From a virus, in the IMG/VR virus record IMGVR_UViG_3300012936_004232, positions 1-21,045 of that record: 21,045 bases of DNA, one strand, 5' to 3'. How positions within the stretch are numbered: the stretch's first letter is position 1; each line of letters opens with the position of its first letter. Below, one piece after another: positions 165 through 17,274 of this stretch. A model generated the notes under the pieces. It saw only the letters and a list, made by a program, of their open reading frames with translations, did not search any database and was not told the origin of the DNA. The translations under genes were made by a program, and so were the position numbers.

Positions 165-1091
165 ATGAGCAAATTCTCTGTCATAAGTCTTCTTGAATCT
201 GTAATGGGTAGAGGGAAGATTAATTCTAATGATAATATTGCATTTCATTGTCCATTTTGTCATCATAACAAAAAGAAGATGGAAGTTAATATTGTTACTC
301 AATATTGGCATTGTTGGGTATGTAATGCAGCAGGCAGAAAATTAACGGTCTTATTTCGTAAATTAAATGTTCAACGAGAAAAAATAGCTAAATTAGTTGA
401 TCTGTTAGATGATGTAGAATGGAAACCAAATAAAACAACTACAGATACTCCAGTTCTTCAATTGCCAGAAGGATATAGGCCATTATGGAAGCTACAAGAA
501 ATGAGTCCTGAATATAGAAATGCTGTTCATTATCTTAAAGGTAGAAATATTACTATTCATGATATCTTAAAATATAGAATTGGTTATTGTCGAAAAGGTC
601 CATATAAAGGTAAAATTATTATTCCAAGTTATGATGCTAATGGTAGCTTAAATTATTTTGTAGCACGTGCATATTATGCAGAAGATAAATTTAAACATAA
701 AAATCCTCCGGCGTCGAAAGATATTGTAGGATTTGAATTACACATAAATTGGAAAATGCCTATTATATTAGTTGAAGGAGCTTTTGATGCTATTGCAATA
801 AAACGTAACTGTATTCCGTTGTTTGGAAAAACAATATCAAATACGTTAAAGAAAAGGATAGTAGAAAAAGGTGTAAAAGAAATTTATATATGTTTAGATT
901 TAGATGCACGTAAGCAAGCACTTGAAACGGCTGAATATTTTATGTCGAATGGATTGAAAGTATATTTTGTAGATATAACAGGAAAAGATCCTAGTGATTT
1001 AGGATTTGAAAAAATAACAGATGTATTACATCAAACGGATATTATGAACGAAACTGAGTTAATGGAACAAAAGATTTTATGCGCACTATAG
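165..1091 (+). CDS. DNA primase, CHC2 zinc finger plus TOPRIM (T4 gp61-like)
   Basis: This enzyme should make RNA primers for lagging-strand synthesis together with the replicative helicase. Residues 29-53 form a zinc-binding site of the primase type: C29-x2-C32, then C50-x2-C53 after a short basic and aromatic stretch. The TOPRIM fold follows, with the acidic glutamate motif EGAFDA at 204-209, the DLDA motif at 245-248 and a third acidic cluster DPSD at 275-278. These supply the metal-binding residues of the active site. At 308 residues it is close to T4 gp61 (about 340), so it looks complete. The ATG at 165 has no strong SD. Its last 13 bases overlap the next gene, which suggests translational coupling with the recombination nuclease. 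The primase call is firm; the helicase partner lies outside the window. Confidence 0.88.
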   Translation: MSKFSVISLLESVMGRGKINSNDNIAFHCPFCHHNKKKMEVNIVTQYWHCWVCNAAGRKLTVLFRKLNVQREKIAKLVDLLDDVEWKPNKTTTDTPVLQLPEGYRPLWKLQEMSPEYRNAVHYLKGRNITIHDILKYRIGYCRKGPYKGKIIIPSYDANGSLNYFVARAYYAEDKFKHKNPPASKDIVGFELHINWKMPIILVEGAFDAIAIKRNCIPLFGKTISNTLKKRIVEKGVKEIYICLDLDARKQALETAEYFMSNGLKVYFVDITGKDPSDLGFEKITDVLHQTDIMNETELMEQKILCAL

Positions 1092-4000
1092 ATATTGGAA
1101 TTGAAAAGATAGATAAAATCTATCATATAGCAGATGTACACGTTAGAAACGTAAAACGACATAAAGAATATGAGTTAGTATTTAAAAGACTATATTCTTA
1201 TATAAAGAAAACAAAAACACAAAATTCTGTTATATATGTTGCTGGAGATATAGTACATGCCAAAACAGATATGTCACCAGAATTAGTAGCAGTTGTATCA
1301 GATTTCTTTAGAAGATTATCAGATTTAGCTCCTACATTAGTAATTACAGGTAATCACGATTGCAATCTAAATAATAGTCATCGAATGGACGCCCTCAGTC
1401 CGATCGTTAAAGCCTTAAATCATCCAAGGCTACATTATCTTAAAGACAATGGTATATATTTGATATCCGGTGTACACTTTAACGTATTATCAGTATTCGA
1501 TAAACCAGTAGATTATATAAAAGCAGATAGTTTCGAAGGAGATTATAAGATTGCATTACATCATGGTTCGGTTCATAATGCATCGACAGATGCTGGATTT
1601 ACTTTAAGTAACACTCATGTCACAACAAAAATGTTTGAAGGGCATGATTTAGTATTATTAGGAGATATACATAAACCACAATATTTAGATGAAGATCGTA
1701 CAATTGCTTATGCTGGATCATTAATCCAACAAAATCACGGAGAAGCTTTAGGACATGGTATTATGGTATGGGACCTAGAAACAAAGAAATGTGAGTTTGT
1801 AGAAATACAAAATGATTATGGATATTATACATATCACGTAGAAGATGGTAAGATCTTAAACCCAAGTGATAAAATACCAATTCGTCCTAGACTAAGATTA
1901 AAAGTAAAAGACACTGATTCTGCGACTCTTAAAGAAATTGTTGCAAAAATAAAATCTGAATACAGAGTTCAAGATATTTCAATTCAGAAAATAAATGCAC
2001 TGAATACCACTGATTCCAAGAAAAAAATTAATTTTGGAAATATACGAGATGTTGAATGGCAAAATAAAGTTATTACAGAATACTTATCAGATGAATATGC
2101 ATTAGATGATCAATTATTAGATACAGTAAGACATATCAATAGAACAGTCCATAGTAAATTACCAACAAGTACATTAACTAGAAATATAACATGGCAACCA
2201 AAGAAATTTGAATTTTCAAACATGTTTAGTTATGGAGATAATAATTTAATCGACTTTACAAATATGAGTGGATTATATGGATTATTTGCTCCAAATGCTT
2301 CTGGTAAATCAACATTGTTAGATGCATTATCTTTTTGTTGTTTTGATAAATGTAGTCGTACTAAATATGCAAAACATGTACTCAATAATAAAAAATCTAG
2401 ATTTCATTGTAAGTTTGAATTTGAATTAGGTAAATACAAATATTTTATTGAACGTAATGCTCGTAAACATAATAATGGCCATGTTAAAGTAAATGTAGAT
2501 TTTTGGAGAATTGATGAATCTGGCAATCATGAAAGCTTAAATGGCGATCAAAGAGATTCTACAAATAAAATAATTCAACAGTATTTAGGTTCGTATGATG
2601 ATTTTGTTTTGACTGCATTATCATTACAAAATAATAATACTGGATTCATAGATAAAAGTCAAAGAGAAAGAAAAGAATTATTATCACAGTTTTTAGATAT
2701 TGATATATTTGAACAATTATATAGTATAGGTCATGAAGATATTAGAGAAACGGCTGCGTTAATTAGAGAATATAAGAGAAAAGATTTTTCGACAGATCTA
2801 GCAGCTGCTAATGATGTTATAACACAGTACACTGGTTCATATGAACAAATGAAAATGGATAAGTCAGAACATGAAGAAATGAAGACAAATCTTAATGACA
2901 TCATTTTCAATATGACCAAAGAATTAAAAAAGGTTGACGAAACATTAGATGATCCAGATGATATCTTATATGAAATAACTCAATTAAATGATCGATTAGG
3001 AAATATTAGATTAGAAAGAGATCAACAAAAAGATTTAATTAAAAATCAAAAGAAACTAATTAAAGAAACTAATCAGAAGATTAATAAAATTGATAAAACA
3101 AAATTAGAAAATTTATTAAACGAATTAACAGAATTAGATGCTGAACAAAATAGACTTGTTCATGAACTAAAAATGAAACAGTTAAAAATTCAACATGCTG
3201 AAAAAATGGTTTCTAAATTAGATAAACATGAATGGGACGAAGATTGTAGTTTTTGTATGGCAAATCCATGGTTAAAAGAAACAAAAGAAGTAGCAGATTT
3301 ATTGCCAAAATTAAAAGAAGAAGAGTTTGGTATTATAACACATCTTCAAGAAATAGAGTCTAATATTTTTAATATCAATGAAACTAAACCTAAAGAAAAA
3401 TTAGAAGCAGTTAATGCATTAGAATCATTACTAATGAATTATGATAAGACATTAGTAACAATGGAGCATAGTTTACAAGGAACTAAATGGGACGTAGAAT
3501 CAATATTAACTGAAATAAAAGATAAAAGAAAAGAACTAACTAAATCTCAAAAACAAAAAGATAATATTGCATTCAATAAAATTAAAAATTCAGAGATACA
3601 AGAAATTCGTGATGAAATATCAACAGTTAGTTTAGAGTTAGGACAATTAGATTCTAAACTACTAACTCTATCAGGTAAATTAAAAATGGCCGAAAAAACA
3701 AGATCAGATGCACAGGGAGGTATTGATAGATTGAAAGAACTTGAACAACAATATTCTGGTTATGAATATTATCAAAAAGCTGTTAACAGAGATGGAGTTC
3801 CTTATCATTTGATAACAAAAGCGTTGCCACAGATTGAATCTGAAATAAATAACATACTCAATCAGATAGTTGAATTTACAATTGTTTTACATACAGATGG
3901 TAAAAATATAAATGCTCATATAGTTTATGATGATGATAATTATTGGCCATTAGAACTAACATCTGGGATGGAAAAGTTTATTTCATCATTAGCAATAAGA

Positions 4001-4234
4001 ACTTCTTTAATAAATGTATCAAATTTACCAAGACCAAACTTTTTAGCAATTGATGAAGGCTTTGGCGTGTTAGATTCTGATAATTTGAATTCAATGTTTT
4101 TATTATTTGATTACCTAAAATCACAATTTGGTTTCTTAATGTGTATTTCTCATATAGATGCTATGAGAGATATAGTAGATAAATTGGTAGAAATTAAAAA
4201 AGTGAACGGATATTCTGAAATTAATTTTACCTAA
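1079..4234 (+). CDS. Fused Mre11/Rad50-type recombination nuclease (gp47-gp46, SbcD-SbcC)
   Basis: One frame encodes both halves of the complex that resects DNA ends for recombination-dependent replication. The N-terminal phosphoesterase has all the metal-binding motifs: DVH at 19-21, GD at 56-57, GNHD at 91-94, HH at 161-162 and GDIH at 195-198. A linker of about 180 residues leads to the ATPase: Walker A APNASGKST at 404-412, two long coiled-coil arms around a CxxC zinc hook (C723, C726), an ABC signature-like LTSGMEK at 960-966, Walker B FLAIDEGFG at 988-996 and an H-loop ISH at 1023-1025. In T4 the nuclease (gp47, about 340 residues) and ATPase (gp46, about 560) are separate genes, and SbcD/SbcC are separate in bacteria. 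Here the join near residues 340-375 is in frame with no internal stop. The start overlaps the primase and cannot be much later, because motif I lies at residue 19. Confidence 0.92.
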   Translation: MRTIDIGIEKIDKIYHIADVHVRNVKRHKEYELVFKRLYSYIKKTKTQNSVIYVAGDIVHAKTDMSPELVAVVSDFFRRLSDLAPTLVITGNHDCNLNNSHRMDALSPIVKALNHPRLHYLKDNGIYLISGVHFNVLSVFDKPVDYIKADSFEGDYKIALHHGSVHNASTDAGFTLSNTHVTTKMFEGHDLVLLGDIHKPQYLDEDRTIAYAGSLIQQNHGEALGHGIMVWDLETKKCEFVEIQNDYGYYTYHVEDGKILNPSDKIPIRPRLRLKVKDTDSATLKEIVAKIKSEYRVQDISIQKINALNTTDSKKKINFGNIRDVEWQNKVITEYLSDEYALDDQLLDTVRHINRTVHSKLPTSTLTRNITWQPKKFEFSNMFSYGDNNLIDFTNMSGLYGLFAPNASGKSTLLDALSFCCFDKCSRTKYAKHVLNNKKSRFHCKFEFELGKYKYFIERNARKHNNGHVKVNVDFWRIDESGNHESLNGDQRDSTNKIIQQYLGSYDDFVLTALSLQNNNTGFIDKSQRERKELLSQFLDIDIFEQLYSIGHEDIRETAALIREYKRKDFSTDLAAANDVITQYTGSYEQMKMDKSEHEEMKTNLNDIIFNMTKELKKVDETLDDPDDILYEITQLNDRLGNIRLERDQQKDLIKNQKKLIKETNQKINKIDKTKLENLLNELTELDAEQNRLVHELKMKQLKIQHAEKMVSKLDKHEWDEDCSFCMANPWLKETKEVADLLPKLKEEEFGIITHLQEIESNIFNINETKPKEKLEAVNALESLLMNYDKTLVTMEHSLQGTKWDVESILTEIKDKRKELTKSQKQKDNIAFNKIKNSEIQEIRDEISTVSLELGQLDSKLLTLSGKLKMAEKTRSDAQGGIDRLKELEQQYSGYEYYQKAVNRDGVPYHLITKALPQIESEINNILNQIVEFTIVLHTDGKNINAHIVYDDDNYWPLELTSGMEKFISSLAIRTSLINVSNLPRPNFLAIDEGFGVLDSDNLNSMFLLFDYLKSQFGFLMCISHIDAMRDIVDKLVEIKKVNGYSEINFT

Positions 4235-7200: not shown

Positions 7201-10200
7201 ATCTCAACATTCAGCACCATTTGCAGTTAATCTTCAAGGAGCACTTACTGCTAGTTCTGGATTAATTGGTGGATTTGAAATTGGAACTTCACAACTTAAT
7301 GATACATCAGATTCTCTAATACTAAAAGATTCAGGTCAAATAACAGGATCGAATGTACTTTTTAGTGGCGGAAAGATTGCTGGATGGTCGATCTCAACCA
7401 GCACCATTCAAAAAACAAATGTAAATGGTGGTGTCAAAATGGACTCTACCAACAAACGTTTAACATTCAGAACCGGATCAGCTCAAGACACAGAAATAGT
7501 ATTTATAGGAAATCTTGGATCTAATAGATATGGTATAAAAGGTTTAGATGCTACTGATACTTCAAAAACAATATTCAAATTAGGTGAAGAAGGAAATGAA
7601 ATAGCCGGATGGACTTTGACTGATGAATCTTTAACAGGCGGTCAGATGATTATCCGAAAAGATGGAACAATTGAATCTGCAGGATTTGCATCTAATGTAG
7701 CTGGTTCTGGATTTAGATTGACTGCAAATCAAGGAGGATTTCTTGAAGTCGAAAATGCTAGAATTAGAGGTACATTAGCAACAACAGTTTTTGAAAAAGA
7801 AGCAGTAAATGCAGTAGGTGGTCAATTATATGTAGCAAATTCATCAACATTAACAGGTTCAGCTGTAGCACCAAATGGAGTCCATTCAGCAACAACGACC
7901 ACAATGTCGTTAGAAAATGTTTCAGGATTTTCGCCAGGAGAAATACTTACTGCTAAAAAAGTAAGTAGTACAGGTTTTGCTACAGAATATATGTTAGTTA
8001 ATTCTTCATCTAGATTTGATAAGTCTAGTGAAACTAATTTTGGAGGATTCTTATTTGTTCAGAGAGGATATGGTGCTGGAACAGCAGGAGACTCAGGGTC
8101 TTTAGGAGATTTAGCATCTGTAGCACAATCATATTCAGGATCACAAGTAATTGTATCAACAGGTAAGATAGGCACAGGATATATTAGATTAAATGCTAAT
8201 CCAAATGACCCATTTACACCATATATAGACATCGTAGAAAGAACTGGATCAGCAATTTATGATATAGATTTAAAAGCTAGACTTGGAGATTTATCAGGTC
8301 TTAGTCAGGCTAGATTGCATGGAACAGATCCTACTAATGCAGGGTTTGGTTTATATTCACAAAATGTATTCCTTGAGGGTGGTATTGTAGCTAATACTGG
8401 TTCCATTGCAGGTATTGAAATGGAGTCTGGTAAATTATATACCGGCGAAGGAAATCATGCAAATACCGATACTGGATTCTATATAGACTCTGGAAGTAAA
8501 TTTTCATTAGGTGATAAATTAACATGGGATGGAACAGCATTAACCGTACGAGGACAATTGCGTTTGAATAATGGAACGCCTGTTGGTAATGGAATGGTAT
8601 GGAGTGGTAGTTGGGAAGTAGGAAAGACATATAATGTTAGTGATGCAGTTGAATATTCTGGTTCATCATATATTGCTGTAGGATCTGAACCACATGTAGC
8701 ATCACATACTAATAGACCTCCAGCTCCAGCATCATGGAGTTTAATGGCAGGTTCTGGATCAGATGGAATTATAGGTAGTGATGGATTTACTGCAAGATCA
8801 TTATTATTAACATTATCTTCTAATGTAATGGTATTTGATAATTCAAGTGATACAAGTGCAACACCAGATAATATTACATTTACTATACAACAACAAAATT
8901 TACATAGTACTATACCACCTGCGAATATATCTATTGTAACTAACACCGGTGCAAATATAACAGGATTTGCATATGATACCGGTAGTATAGTAGATGAAGG
9001 AGGACGATTTTCTGGTCAGGCTAGTGGTAGTATAACATGGGTAGGTAGTATATCATCCGGCGGATTAGCACAAACTAAAGGATATTTTCCAATAACAATT
9101 ACAGTAACATCAGGATCAGTTTTATCTGATTCTGCAACAATAGCTAAAATACAAGGTGGAGATGATGGATCTCAAGGTACTGCTGGTACTGATGCTAAAC
9201 TATTATCATTAGAAACATCGACATTTACATTTGTAAAAGCATTGGATGGGACAATAACACCTGCAACAGCATCAATAACAGCTAGTTTACAAAATACAAC
9301 ATCAGCAACAGCATCATATGAAACAGTTCCAGCAGTAACATTATTAACTGGTTCGTTATTAGATTTAACTAGAATGGAACTAACGAAAGGACATTTTGGA
9401 ACTAATACATCAGTTAGAATTACTGCAAACGGGGATAGCGGCGCTGTCACAGACTCAGTTACTTTTGTATTATTGGATGAAGGTTCTGGTAATATTCAAA
9501 CAACATTATCAAATCCTAGTCATACATTCCAATCCGATTTCAATGGAAATGTTACTAGTTTTGATGGAGGAGGGTCTGAACTTAATGTATTTGAAGGTGC
9601 AACAGCATTAACATATAAAACAACTACACCAGCTGCTGGACAATTCTCTGCTTCTCTAAATGCAATAAATATAACACCTGGTTCTATTACCGGTAATAAT
9701 TCAACAACTGCAGTATTAAATACTCCTTCTGCAATGTCTGCAGCATCCGGAGCATTACATGTTACAATTACAGGTAAAACACAAAACGATACAGCATTTA
9801 CTTCATCAGTAACTCAATCATTTGCAAAATCATTAGCAGGAGAAACAGGAACGCCTGGTACTAATGCTAAAGGGGTAATTGTAAATGGATCAACATTAAT
9901 ATTTACAAAAGCAATTGATGGAACAATAACTCCATCTTCTGCAACATTTACTGCTAGCTTAAATGGTGCAACTGATGATGGTGCATGGTCTACAACAGCA
10001 GGAACATTATCTGGTATTAGTAATGATGCATCAGATACAGCCGCTCCTCCTGTATGTACAGTTAATAGTGCTGATTTTGTAGATGGAATGAAAGTTACAT
10101 ATACAATGGCATCTGCAGACAATTCATTTGCTGATTCAGTAACATTGAAATTGATAGATGCAGGATCTGGTAATGTTCAGACAATACTTTCAAATACAAA

Positions 10201-14829: not shown

Positions 14830-17274
14830 ATGAAAACTTTAGGACACGAAATAATAGAACAGATGTTATCTGAGTCACCAGTGAAAACTGTATTGGTAGT
14901 ATATCCGGGCAGATTTCAACCAATGGGACAACATCATGCTGCAGTTTATAAAAAATTGGCAAGCAAATTTGGTAAATCAAATACATTTGTTGTAACATCA
15001 GACAAAGTTGCATTACCTAAATCTCCATTGAATTTCAAAGAAAAGGAAATGGTAATGCGAAAACATGGAATAACAAATGTTGTTCAAGTCCGAAACCCAT
15101 ATCAAGCACAAGAGTTGACTAGCAAATATGATCCAGAAACAACTGCATTATTATTTGCTGTAGGTAAAAAAGATATGATGGAAAATCCTAGATTCAAAAT
15201 AGGATTAAAGAAAAATGGAGAACCTAGTTATTTTCAAGATTATGAAGCAAATAAAAATAATCTGCAACCATTTACTCAACATGGATATTTAGTTGTTGCA
15301 CCGCATGTTGATATTCAAATACCTGGCTTTGGAGAAATGTCCGGAACTACATTAAGACAAGTATTAGCAACAGCTGATGCAGAAACATTTAAAGATGTTA
15401 TGGGATTTTTTGATCCTAAAATATATAACATGTTACAAACTAAGTTTTCTTCATTACGTACGGAAACAATAGAATCATTTTTAACTGAGAATAGTTTAAC
15501 CGGAATTGGAGATACATCTGCAGATGATGGTCCTAGATACTTATATGGAAATCAAGCTACATATAGAAAAAAGACTGCAGAAATGGCTAGACGATTAGGA
15601 TATGAGGTAGTAAATTATATAGTTAAAGACAACCCAATTGAAGTACATGACACAAATTATCCAGATGGACCCCCATTAACAGTTTCATATTTTCCTACCG
15701 GCGTAAAAGGAGGAGATTTTGCAGGTACAGATTATTTGAAAAATTATAAAGGTAATCCTGCATATTCATTATGGAAAAAAGAAATACAAAAAATAGCTCA
15801 AGTCGTAGGATATAAGTTTTTAGATTTTCTAGGAGCAGAAGATTCTATAGAATCTAGTAAAAAGGAAAAGTTAGGAACACCTACAGGACTAATGGAAGAT
15901 TTCAATGTACCTATCAATATAGGTGATACAGTGATGATGGGCAAGTTTAAAAATAAACCTGTCGTTGTACAAACAATTCAAATCAGTCAAAAAGGAGATT
16001 TATTAATAAATGGCAAATCGGCTGCTCGATTTAGAATAATACCAAAAGAAGAAAAACAAGCATTAACTAAAGAGTGGTGGAGCGATTCGTTAAAAGAATT
16101 GTTAACAGAGGCAAAGGCAAATACACATTTAACTCATTTAGAAGAATTAGTTTTGACTCAAGGAGAATCTGGATATAAACAAGCAAGATCATTTTTAGTT
16201 GAACTACTAAAAAATCTAGCAGGTAATTCAAATACCAAAATAAACACATCAGTTAAATGGGACGGAGCCCCGGCGATATTTACAGGAATCAATCCTGATA
16301 ATGGACAGTTCTTTGTAGGAACAAAGTCAGTATTTAATAAAGTACCTAAGATTAACTATACAATGGAAGATATAGATGCTAACCATGGACAAGCTCCTGG
16401 TCTAGCAGATAAATTGAAGTTGGCATTACAATATTTTCCATCATTAGGTATAAAAAATATTCTGCAAGGAGATTTTATGTTTGATTCGAGTATGGTTAAA
16501 AATACAAATATAGATGGTAAGCCACATTTGTCATTCAGACCAAATACAATTACATATGCAGTAGAATCAGATTCTGAATTAGGAAAACAAGTTGCAGCAG
16601 CAAAAATTGGTATAGTATTTCATACAACATATCAGTCATTATCTTCAGGAGCTAGTTTTGGAGCAGATGTAAGTGGATTAAATCAAACTAGAGATGTTTG
16701 GTTTGATGATGCATTTTTTAAAGATTCAACAGGTATAGTTACATTAACAGTCGAAGAAGCAAAAGAAGTACAAAATTTAATTAAAAAAGCAGATTCTATT
16801 AAAGTTAATTATGATAACTTACCAATGGCAGATCTTAATGTTTATTTGAACAAAGAAATCAAATCTGGACAATTTGTTAATAATCCTAAGGTATCATTTA
16901 AAGCATTTCAAAAATGGTATAAAATGACAAGAATCGATAAACGTATTGAAAAATTAAAATCTGAAAAAGGAAAAATGAAAGCTATAGCTGCTGGACAAGA
17001 ACAAATGAAAATGTTTCAAAGAAGGCAACAAGATATAGTAAATTTATTTCAAGTATCAAAATTATTGTCAGACGCCAAACTTATATTTGTACGTAAATAT
17101 AACAATGCTATTTATAATGCAAAACATTTTGTAGACGATGGTAAAGGAGGCTTAAGAGTCACTGCACCAGAAGGATATGTTGCAGTTGATAGAATAGGCA
17201 ATGGAGTTAAATTTGTAGATAGGATAGAATTTAGTAGAGCAAATTTTGCTATGGATAAAGGCTTTACAAAATAG
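14830..17274 (+). CDS. NMNAT/cytidylyltransferase-like enzyme fused to a ligase-like domain
   Basis: Residues 18-200 are a Rossmann nucleotidyltransferase of the NMNAT/cytidylyltransferase superfamily: GRFQP at 27-31 opens the nucleotide site, H36 is the second histidine of the HxGH motif, and SGTTLR at 171-176 matches the ISSTxxR motif. The first HxGH histidine is replaced (GQHH at 33-36). Residues 222-345 form an unrecognised domain and 360-405 a small beta domain. Residues 430-814 carry nucleic-acid ligase-type motifs: KWDG at 476-479 (lysine that takes the AMP), GDF at 547-549, VFHTTY at 596-601, EGYV at 781-784 and K794-x3-R798. Spacing between the last two pairs is larger than usual because of a helical insertion. 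Candidate prohead-protease sites (LSE|S at 15, LTE|N at 220, LTE|A at 427) fall at the N-terminus and the domain linkers. The superfamily call for the first domain is firm; the ligase call is inference; substrates are unknown. Confidence 0.72.
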   Translation: MKTLGHEIIEQMLSESPVKTVLVVYPGRFQPMGQHHAAVYKKLASKFGKSNTFVVTSDKVALPKSPLNFKEKEMVMRKHGITNVVQVRNPYQAQELTSKYDPETTALLFAVGKKDMMENPRFKIGLKKNGEPSYFQDYEANKNNLQPFTQHGYLVVAPHVDIQIPGFGEMSGTTLRQVLATADAETFKDVMGFFDPKIYNMLQTKFSSLRTETIESFLTENSLTGIGDTSADDGPRYLYGNQATYRKKTAEMARRLGYEVVNYIVKDNPIEVHDTNYPDGPPLTVSYFPTGVKGGDFAGTDYLKNYKGNPAYSLWKKEIQKIAQVVGYKFLDFLGAEDSIESSKKEKLGTPTGLMEDFNVPINIGDTVMMGKFKNKPVVVQTIQISQKGDLLINGKSAARFRIIPKEEKQALTKEWWSDSLKELLTEAKANTHLTHLEELVLTQGESGYKQARSFLVELLKNLAGNSNTKINTSVKWDGAPAIFTGINPDNGQFFVGTKSVFNKVPKINYTMEDIDANHGQAPGLADKLKLALQYFPSLGIKNILQGDFMFDSSMVKNTNIDGKPHLSFRPNTITYAVESDSELGKQVAAAKIGIVFHTTYQSLSSGASFGADVSGLNQTRDVWFDDAFFKDSTGIVTLTVEEAKEVQNLIKKADSIKVNYDNLPMADLNVYLNKEIKSGQFVNNPKVSFKAFQKWYKMTRIDKRIEKLKSEKGKMKAIAAGQEQMKMFQRRQQDIVNLFQVSKLLSDAKLIFVRKYNNAIYNAKHFVDDGKGGLRVTAPEGYVAVDRIGNGVKFVDRIEFSRANFAMDKGFTK

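What the first reader, a model, noticed from the sequence alone, without database searches (positions are those of the whole stretch)
14830..17274. Nucleotidyltransferase joined to a ligase-like domain in one phage gene
An N-terminal NMNAT/cytidylyltransferase-type Rossmann domain (GRFQP, SGTTLR) shares a chain with a C-terminal domain carrying KWDG at 476-479 and EGYV at 781-784 followed by K794. That is the order of motif I, motif IV and motif V of covalent nucleotidyltransferases; EGYV is also, from memory, the form seen in T4 RNA ligase 1. GDF (547-549) and VFHTTY (596-601) sit where motifs III and IIIa would be. NAD or CDP-type chemistry coupled with AMP-lysine chemistry suggests an undescribed nucleic-acid repair, capping or cofactor-linked modification activity.
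Basis: partly seen in the sequence, partly recalled or inferred. Interest (0 to 1): 0.78.

Follow-up and report, generated by a model that had tools for sequence, protein, structure and literature searches.

The report
Ligase-like domain fused to NMNAT-like nucleotidyltransferase
One phage gene joins a nucleotide-activating enzyme domain to a second domain (Pfam DUF6267, no known function) that conserves the whole active site of DNA/RNA ligases and capping enzymes; this second domain is carried by hundreds of marine phages, several of which have no ligase of any family tested.

Summary
The 814-aa ORF (14830-17274) has an N-terminal HIGH-type nucleotidyltransferase (NTase) and a C-terminal DUF6267 domain (431-810, Pfam E 6e-100). 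K476, D478, G479, E781, G782 and K794 are invariant in 87 relatives; the one apparent exception is a mini-intein inserted directly behind KxDG. AlphaFold2 models of long and short forms are confident (pLDDT 92). Foldseek against PDB gives no individually significant match, but with the short form the ten best hits are all covalent nucleotidyltransferases from different families. Sequence profiles do not reach known ligases. I conclude that DUF6267 is a very divergent branch of the covalent nucleotidyltransferase (ligase/capping) superfamily; lysine-AMP chemistry is inferred, not shown. The link to NMNAT-like NTases is general: N- or C-terminal fusions with different NTase subtypes, or adjacent genes. 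PHROG 455 already contains such a chimera, but no paper found assigns the domain a function. The window's NTase has an altered HxGH motif (GxHH), so its activity is uncertain. Four phages with DUF6267 lack four standard ligase families, but two others have both, so simple replacement of DNA ligase is not established. Best guess: nucleic-acid end joining, the NTase supplying or recycling the cofactor.

The parts
14830..17274 (+). whole ORF, 814 aa, NTase + middle region + DUF6267
   Evidence: identical or near-identical ORF in IMG/VR loci L001-L004
14830..15465 (+). N-terminal HIGH-superfamily nucleotidyltransferase domain, residues 1-212
   Evidence: PF01467 17.4 bits (cut-off 21) and phrog_395 cytidyltransferase E 6e-6; 10 of 11 family members match PF01467, best E 6e-11; PDB profile best hit MJ0541 archaeal NMNAT 1f9a E 0.0025
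14908..14937 (+). GRFQPMGQHH (27-36), altered HxGH: first His lost, second His kept
   Evidence: GRFQPMG[QRKP]HH in the fused clade, GRFQPFHKGH in unfused relatives L118 and L146
15340..15357 (+). SGTTLR (171-176), equivalent of the ISxTxxR motif
   Evidence: S171, L175 and R176 invariant in A7
15466..16119 (+). middle region 213-430, no family match; absent or shortened in several fused relatives
16120..17259 (+). DUF6267 domain, residues 431-810
   Evidence: PF19782 E 6e-100; AlphaFold2 pLDDT 91.6
16120..16143 (+). NTHLTHLE (431-438), conserved HxxHxE block before motif I
   Evidence: H and E residues invariant in the 71-sequence alignment A6 and
16255..16266 (+). motif I KWDG (476-479), K476 = presumed nucleotidyl-lysine
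   Evidence: invariant in 87 of 87; KIDG in L172 outside its intein
16324..16326 (+). K499 in FFVGTKS, position of motif Ia
   Evidence: invariant
16465..16473 (+). QGD (546-548), position of motif III (Asp instead of the usual Glu)
   Evidence: invariant in the long forms; QAD in short forms
16543..16557 (+). NTITY (572-576), candidate motif IIIa strand
   Evidence: N572 and Y576 invariant
16621..16632 (+).
   Evidence: H598, T599 and Y601 invariant
16750..17103 (+). helical insert about 641-758 between motifs IIIa and IV, shorter in 283-320-aa relatives
   Evidence: DSSP of models; short forms
17170..17181 (+). motif IV EGYV (781-784)
   Evidence: E781, G782 and V784 invariant
17209..17211 (+). 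motif V K794, followed by near-invariant R798
   Evidence: K794 88/88, R798 87/88

Best explanation
DUF6267 is a strongly diverged covalent nucleotidyltransferase (the DNA ligase / RNA ligase / mRNA-capping superfamily). K476 would attack the alpha phosphate of a nucleotide cofactor to form a lysine-NMP intermediate held by motifs III, IV and V, and pass the NMP to a 5' end so that two nucleic-acid ends can be joined. The HIGH-type NTase, fused here and a neighbouring gene elsewhere, most likely makes or regenerates that cofactor (for example NAD+ from NMN and ATP, as NMNAT does) or prepares the substrate. Shown: motif conservation, confident fold models whose best structural neighbours are ligases, and the recurrent NTase association. 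Inferred: lysine adenylylation, ligation, substrate, and the cofactor role of the NTase.
For: Pfam DUF6267 E 6e-100. All catalytic-motif residues invariant in order in 87-88 sequences, and in short forms sharing 27-36% identity with long ones. Intein placed exactly after KxDG in L172, as inteins do in active sites (the rule is general knowledge). AlphaFold2 pLDDT 91.6 and 92.0, pTM 0.88 for both, with strand/helix order matching motifs I-Ia-III-IIIa-IV-V. Foldseek/PDB with the short form: ranks 1-10 and 35 of the top 50 are DNA ligases, RNA/tRNA ligases, LigA or capping enzymes, and the others listed have probability 0.06 or less; with the long form the highest probabilities (0.10-0.23) are almost all from the same superfamily. 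BFVD: RNA ligase of phage Atu_ph07 E 6e-4, probability 1.00. NTase link: fused or within 3 kb for 52 of 90 ORFs found with the DUF domain alone, plus 4 further away; fusions at either end with different NTase subtypes. Gene sits beside uvsX, gp41 helicase and MazG in T4-like cyanophages.
Against: No single PDB match is significant (best E 0.07, TM-scores 0.16-0.26). Profile-profile comparison with T4 Rnl1 and Rnl2 is at the level of reversed decoys and profile searches of PDB and Pfam find no ligase. Motif III has Asp for Glu, and motif V has K...R instead of KxK. No OB-fold or other known nucleic-acid-binding domain was recognised. The window's NTase has lost the first His of HxGH. No activity has been measured.
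Confidence: 0.6

Rival explanations
1. DUF6267 is specifically the DNA ligase of phages that lost or never had T4 gp30, sealing Okazaki nicks and recombination intermediates.
For: PMC2984593 states that T4-like cyanophages have no g30 DNA ligase homologue and that a distant one might be unrecognised. S-WAM1, S-RIM2, syn9 and Melnitz-3 carry DUF6267 and have none of PF01068, PF01653, PF09414, PF09511. The gene lies in the replication/recombination module.
Against: Stenotrophomonas phage DLP_6 has DUF6267 and a PF01068 DNA ligase; Vibrio phage EniLVp02 has DUF6267 plus DNA ligase, Rnl1 and Rnl2 families. Host ligase can substitute, as PMC2984593 says. The NTase partner is unexplained.
Confidence: 0.2
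2. RNA repair: the protein mends tRNA or other RNA cut by host anticodon nucleases; NTase, kinase and phosphatase neighbours process the ends.
For: RNA ligases are among the best structural neighbours. Some loci add a HAD-like phosphatase downstream, or an NTase fused to a P-loop kinase.
Against: Kinase and phosphatase neighbours are sporadic. The conserved neighbours are DNA replication genes. EniLVp02 already has Rnl1 and Rnl2 families.
Confidence: 0.2
3. A nucleotidyl transfer other than ligation, such as 5' capping, nucleic-acid modification or protein nucleotidylylation, with the NTase making the donor.
For: The NTase partner resembles NMNAT and phosphopantetheine adenylyltransferases. 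Mass spectrometry found the neighbouring NTase in virions of S-SZBM1, S-CREM2 and S-SCSM1, hinting at a role early in infection. No nucleic-acid-binding domain is recognised.
Against: The DUF6267 protein itself (SSZBM1_141) was not among the S-SZBM1 virion proteins. Motif arrangement alone does not separate ligases from capping enzymes.
Confidence: 0.15
4. The motifs are convergent: DUF6267 is an unrelated, perhaps non-catalytic, fold.
For: No individually significant PDB match and low TM-scores; no profile match.
Against: Invariant catalytic residues in order, intein at KxDG, and ten of ten best structural hits of the short form being covalent nucleotidyltransferases of different families.
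Confidence: 0.12

Closest known systems
Covalent nucleotidyltransferase superfamily (ATP/NAD DNA ligases, T4 Rnl1/Rnl2 RNA ligases, mRNA capping enzymes)
   Same: Order and invariance of KxDG, Ia Lys, III acidic residue, EG[YF]V, V Lys; predicted strand order; best Foldseek neighbours
   Different: No sequence-profile match, Asp in motif III, K...R in motif V, large helical insert between IIIa and IV, conserved HxxHxE block before motif I, no recognised OB or DNA-binding domain
Pfam DUF6267 (PF19782) / PHROG 455
   Same: Window residues 431-810 are a full-length, high-scoring member; PHROG 455 also joins DUF6267 to the cytidyltransferase
   Different: Window type has the NTase at the N terminus and a different NTase subtype
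HIGH-superfamily NTases: NMNAT (NadM/NadR type), phosphopantetheine adenylyltransferase, phrog_395 cytidyltransferase
   Same: GRFQP, KSPxxFxEK and SGTTLR blocks; best PDB profile hits are NMNAT and PPAT
   Different: HxGH replaced by GxHH in the fused clade; substrate unknown; matches weak

Membership tests
DUF6267 (PF19782) | Score above the Pfam gathering threshold over the full model | tested here: met
   335.6 bits against 27, model positions 1-376 of 376
Covalent nucleotidyltransferase superfamily | Motif I KxDG with invariant Lys | tested here: met
Covalent nucleotidyltransferase superfamily | Motif III acidic residue, usually Glu | tested here: inconclusive
   Invariant D548 at the expected place, Asp not Glu
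Covalent nucleotidyltransferase superfamily | Motif IV EG-x-V and motif V Lys | tested here: met
   E781, G782, V784 and K794 invariant; KxK of motif V is K...R
Covalent nucleotidyltransferase superfamily | Adenylation-domain fold | tested here: inconclusive
   Confident models; best neighbours are this superfamily, but E 0.07 or worse and TM about 0.2
Covalent nucleotidyltransferase superfamily | K and E of motifs I and IV together in one pocket | not testable with these tools
   No coordinates are returned by the structure tool
Covalent nucleotidyltransferase superfamily | Covalent lysine-NMP intermediate | not testable with these tools
   Needs biochemistry
T4 RNA ligase 1 (PF09511) | Sequence-profile homology | tested here: not met
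   hhalign P 0.038, only motif IV-V aligned, reversed decoy equal; no Pfam match
T4 RNA ligase 2 (PF09414) | Sequence-profile homology | tested here: not met
   hhalign P 0.13; no Pfam match
ATP- or NAD-dependent DNA ligases (PF01068, PF01653) | Sequence-profile homology | tested here: not met
   No Pfam match from any of 15 members and no PDB profile match
HIGH-superfamily nucleotidyltransferase (PF01467) | Family match | tested here: met
   The window alone is below the cut-off (17.4 against 21) but 10 of 11 relatives match, best E 6e-11
HIGH-superfamily nucleotidyltransferase (PF01467) | Intact (H/T)xGH catalytic motif | tested here: not met
   GQHH in the window, GxHH throughout the fused clade
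NMN adenylyltransferase | NMN and ATP as substrates | not tested
   Only weak profile similarity

The most novel reading that the evidence does not exclude
A new class of phage covalent nucleotidyltransferase that works as a unit with a cofactor-making NTase: the ligase-like domain uses a dinucleotide such as NAD+, releases NMN, and the fused NTase turns it back into NAD+ with ATP. The same unit would supply end-joining in marine T4-like phages in which no ligase is recognised.
Probability: 0.15. Interest if true: 0.85.

Novelty: new variant of a known kind. Interest (0 to 1): 0.6.

Why it matters
DUF6267 occurs in at least 467 phage records, mostly T4-like cyanophages, has no assigned function, and no paper in the library searched names it. 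If it is a covalent nucleotidyltransferase, a widespread gene of abundant marine phages gains a testable chemistry, and the puzzle of the missing ligase in T4-like cyanophages (PMC2984593) becomes a simple enzyme assay. The repeated fusion to NMNAT-like enzymes would show how a phage couples cofactor supply to end joining.

Tried and rejected
(1) Close kinship to T4 Rnl1 from EGYV: EGFV is nearly as common in the family and profile comparison is at decoy level. (2) Detecting the superfamily by sequence: Pfam, NCBIfam and PDB profiles give no ligase. (3) Simple replacement of DNA ligase: two phages carry both. (4) DUF6267 as a virion protein: its neighbours are detected in S-SZBM1 virions, it is not. 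(5) K476/D478/G479 lost in L172: explained by an intein. (6) Anti-phage defence: no PADLOC match. (7) A LigA alignment for profile comparison failed in my script, so LigA was compared only through Pfam, PDB profiles and Foldseek. (8) The Atu_ph07 RNA ligase gene behind the BFVD hit was looked for but which of its ligase-like ORFs it is was not settled.

Full report
What is there. The ORF 14830-17274 (+) is 814 aa. The window is a 21-kb virus record with a primase-like gene, an SbcD-SbcC-like gene, a 3106-aa likely tail-fibre protein, a tail-fibre protein with a Peptidase_S74 chaperone domain, this ORF, three small genes without convincing family matches, a holin and a terminase large subunit. 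Residues 431-810 are a complete DUF6267 domain. Residues 1-212 are a HIGH-superfamily NTase: weak for the window alone, clear for the family. Residues 213-430 match nothing.

Motifs. Alignments of 15, 88 and 71 DUF6267 domains show that the invariant columns are those a covalent nucleotidyltransferase would need: K476xDG (I), K499 (Ia), D548 (III), N572/Y576 and H598/T599/Y601 (IIIa region), E781-G-x-V (IV), K794 (V), with near-invariant R798. L172, the only apparent exception, reads LSTKIDG, then an intein-like insert starting with Cys and ending VVIHN, then SPAVF; the intein call is from its hallmark residues and Pfam did not confirm it. An intein immediately after the presumed active-site lysine motif is what one expects of an essential active site (general knowledge).

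Fold. AlphaFold2 gave pLDDT 91.6 / pTM 0.88 for window residues 427-814 and 92.0 / 0.88 for a 298-aa short-form relative. Foldseek against PDB gave no match below E 0.001 for either. For the short form the ten best matches are DNA ligase IV, Thermococcus ligase, tRNA ligase, DNA ligase III, a Palaeococcus RNA ligase, Naegleria RNA ligase, LigA and Pyrococcus ligase among them, and I count 35 of the top 50 from this superfamily; the rest are mostly carbonic anhydrases with probability 0.02 or less. For the long form the same superfamily has nearly all the highest probabilities (0.10-0.23), with carbonic anhydrases ranked among them by E-value but at probability 0.05 or less. Among viral models the first hit outside plain family members is an RNA ligase of phage Atu_ph07 at E 6e-4. 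TM-scores are low (0.16-0.26), so the relationship is distant. Sequence-profile methods do not see it. I judge superfamily membership at about 0.85 and true ligase activity at about 0.6.

The NTase partner. DUF6267 and NMNAT-like NTases occur as N-terminal fusions (window type, and another subtype in L051, L053, L054, L058), C-terminal fusions (L045-L049, L085, L096) and adjacent genes. Of 90 ORFs found with the DUF domain alone, 7 are fused, 45 have an NTase gene within 3 kb and 4 further away; 10 with at least 3 kb downstream have none detected and 24 have too little flank. In the window clade HxGH is GRFQPMG[QRKP]HH, while related unfused genes in L118 and L146 keep GRFQPFHKGH and the other subtypes keep [HT]xGH. 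Conservation of GxHH suggests a selected change, but activity cannot be assumed. Best PDB profile matches are archaeal NMNAT and PPAT.

Context. In T4-like cyanophages the gene lies in the order uvsX, 2OG oxygenase, gp41 helicase, MazG, an unknown gene, DUF6267, cytidyltransferase. In 138 of 146 loci with enough sequence an ORF ends within 350 nt upstream of DUF6267. By eye several of these diverse ORFs carry a PD-(D/E)XK-like nuclease signature, for example SDVKIEI...AIWLEVKMS in L115; Pfam does not recognise those tested, so this is a lead only. The window lacks this neighbour. A library review says T4-like cyanophages lack g30 DNA ligase and RNase H homologues (PMC2984593). Four tested phages with DUF6267 have none of four ligase families, but DLP_6 has a DNA ligase and EniLVp02 has three ligase families; T4 rang as positive control for the three ATP-ligase families.

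What is known. No paper in the library mentions DUF6267. PHROG 455 already spans DUF6267 and the NTase but is labelled unknown function. The neighbouring NTase has been reported in cyanophage virions and speculated to act on NAD levels (PMC10665884, PMC9602691, PMC9146016). The fusion is therefore present in databases; the assignment of DUF6267 to the covalent nucleotidyltransferases appears to be new as far as these tools show.

Limits. Coordinates of the models were not available, so the key K476-E781 distance is untested. Neighbourhood counts rest on a homology threshold and on related loci, and many contigs are short. Searches of public collections were capped.

Noticed in passing
L172:1586-3274: Intein-like insert of about 140 aa placed exactly between KIDG and SPAVF of a DUF6267 protein in a contig binned as Bacilli; Pfam did not name it.
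   Followed up: partly
L115:7204-7959, L169:7148-7939, L117:6913-7956, L118:6167-7288, L090:6835-7956, L312:3665-4933: Diverse ORFs directly upstream of DUF6267 show a PD-(D/E)XK-like nuclease signature by eye, often with SLK in place of ExK; no Pfam match for those scanned.
   Followed up: partly
L118:10277-12838: An HxGH-intact NTase relative of the window's N-terminal domain is fused to a P-loop kinase (Zeta_toxin/AAA_33) near a separate DUF6267 gene, recalling NadR or polynucleotide-kinase fusions.
   Followed up: no
L102:2729-3490; L138:9149-9757: A HAD-like phosphatase and an adenylate kinase gene recur downstream of DUF6267 in some loci (10 and 6 loci).
   Followed up: partly
window 1079-4234: Single 1051-aa ORF with a calcineurin-like phosphoesterase domain and an SbcC-like ATPase, apparently a fusion of the two subunits (T4 gp47 and gp46 equivalents).
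   Followed up: no
L406:6233-7321 and 7349-8722 (S-SZBM1_140 and _139): The NTase next to DUF6267 and the following hypothetical protein were detected in the S-SZBM1 virion proteome (PMC9146016); DUF6267 (SSZBM1_141) was not.
   Followed up: yes
L043, L044, L036: Fused proteins of 929-962 aa carry extra sequence between NTase and DUF6267 compared with the window.
   Followed up: no
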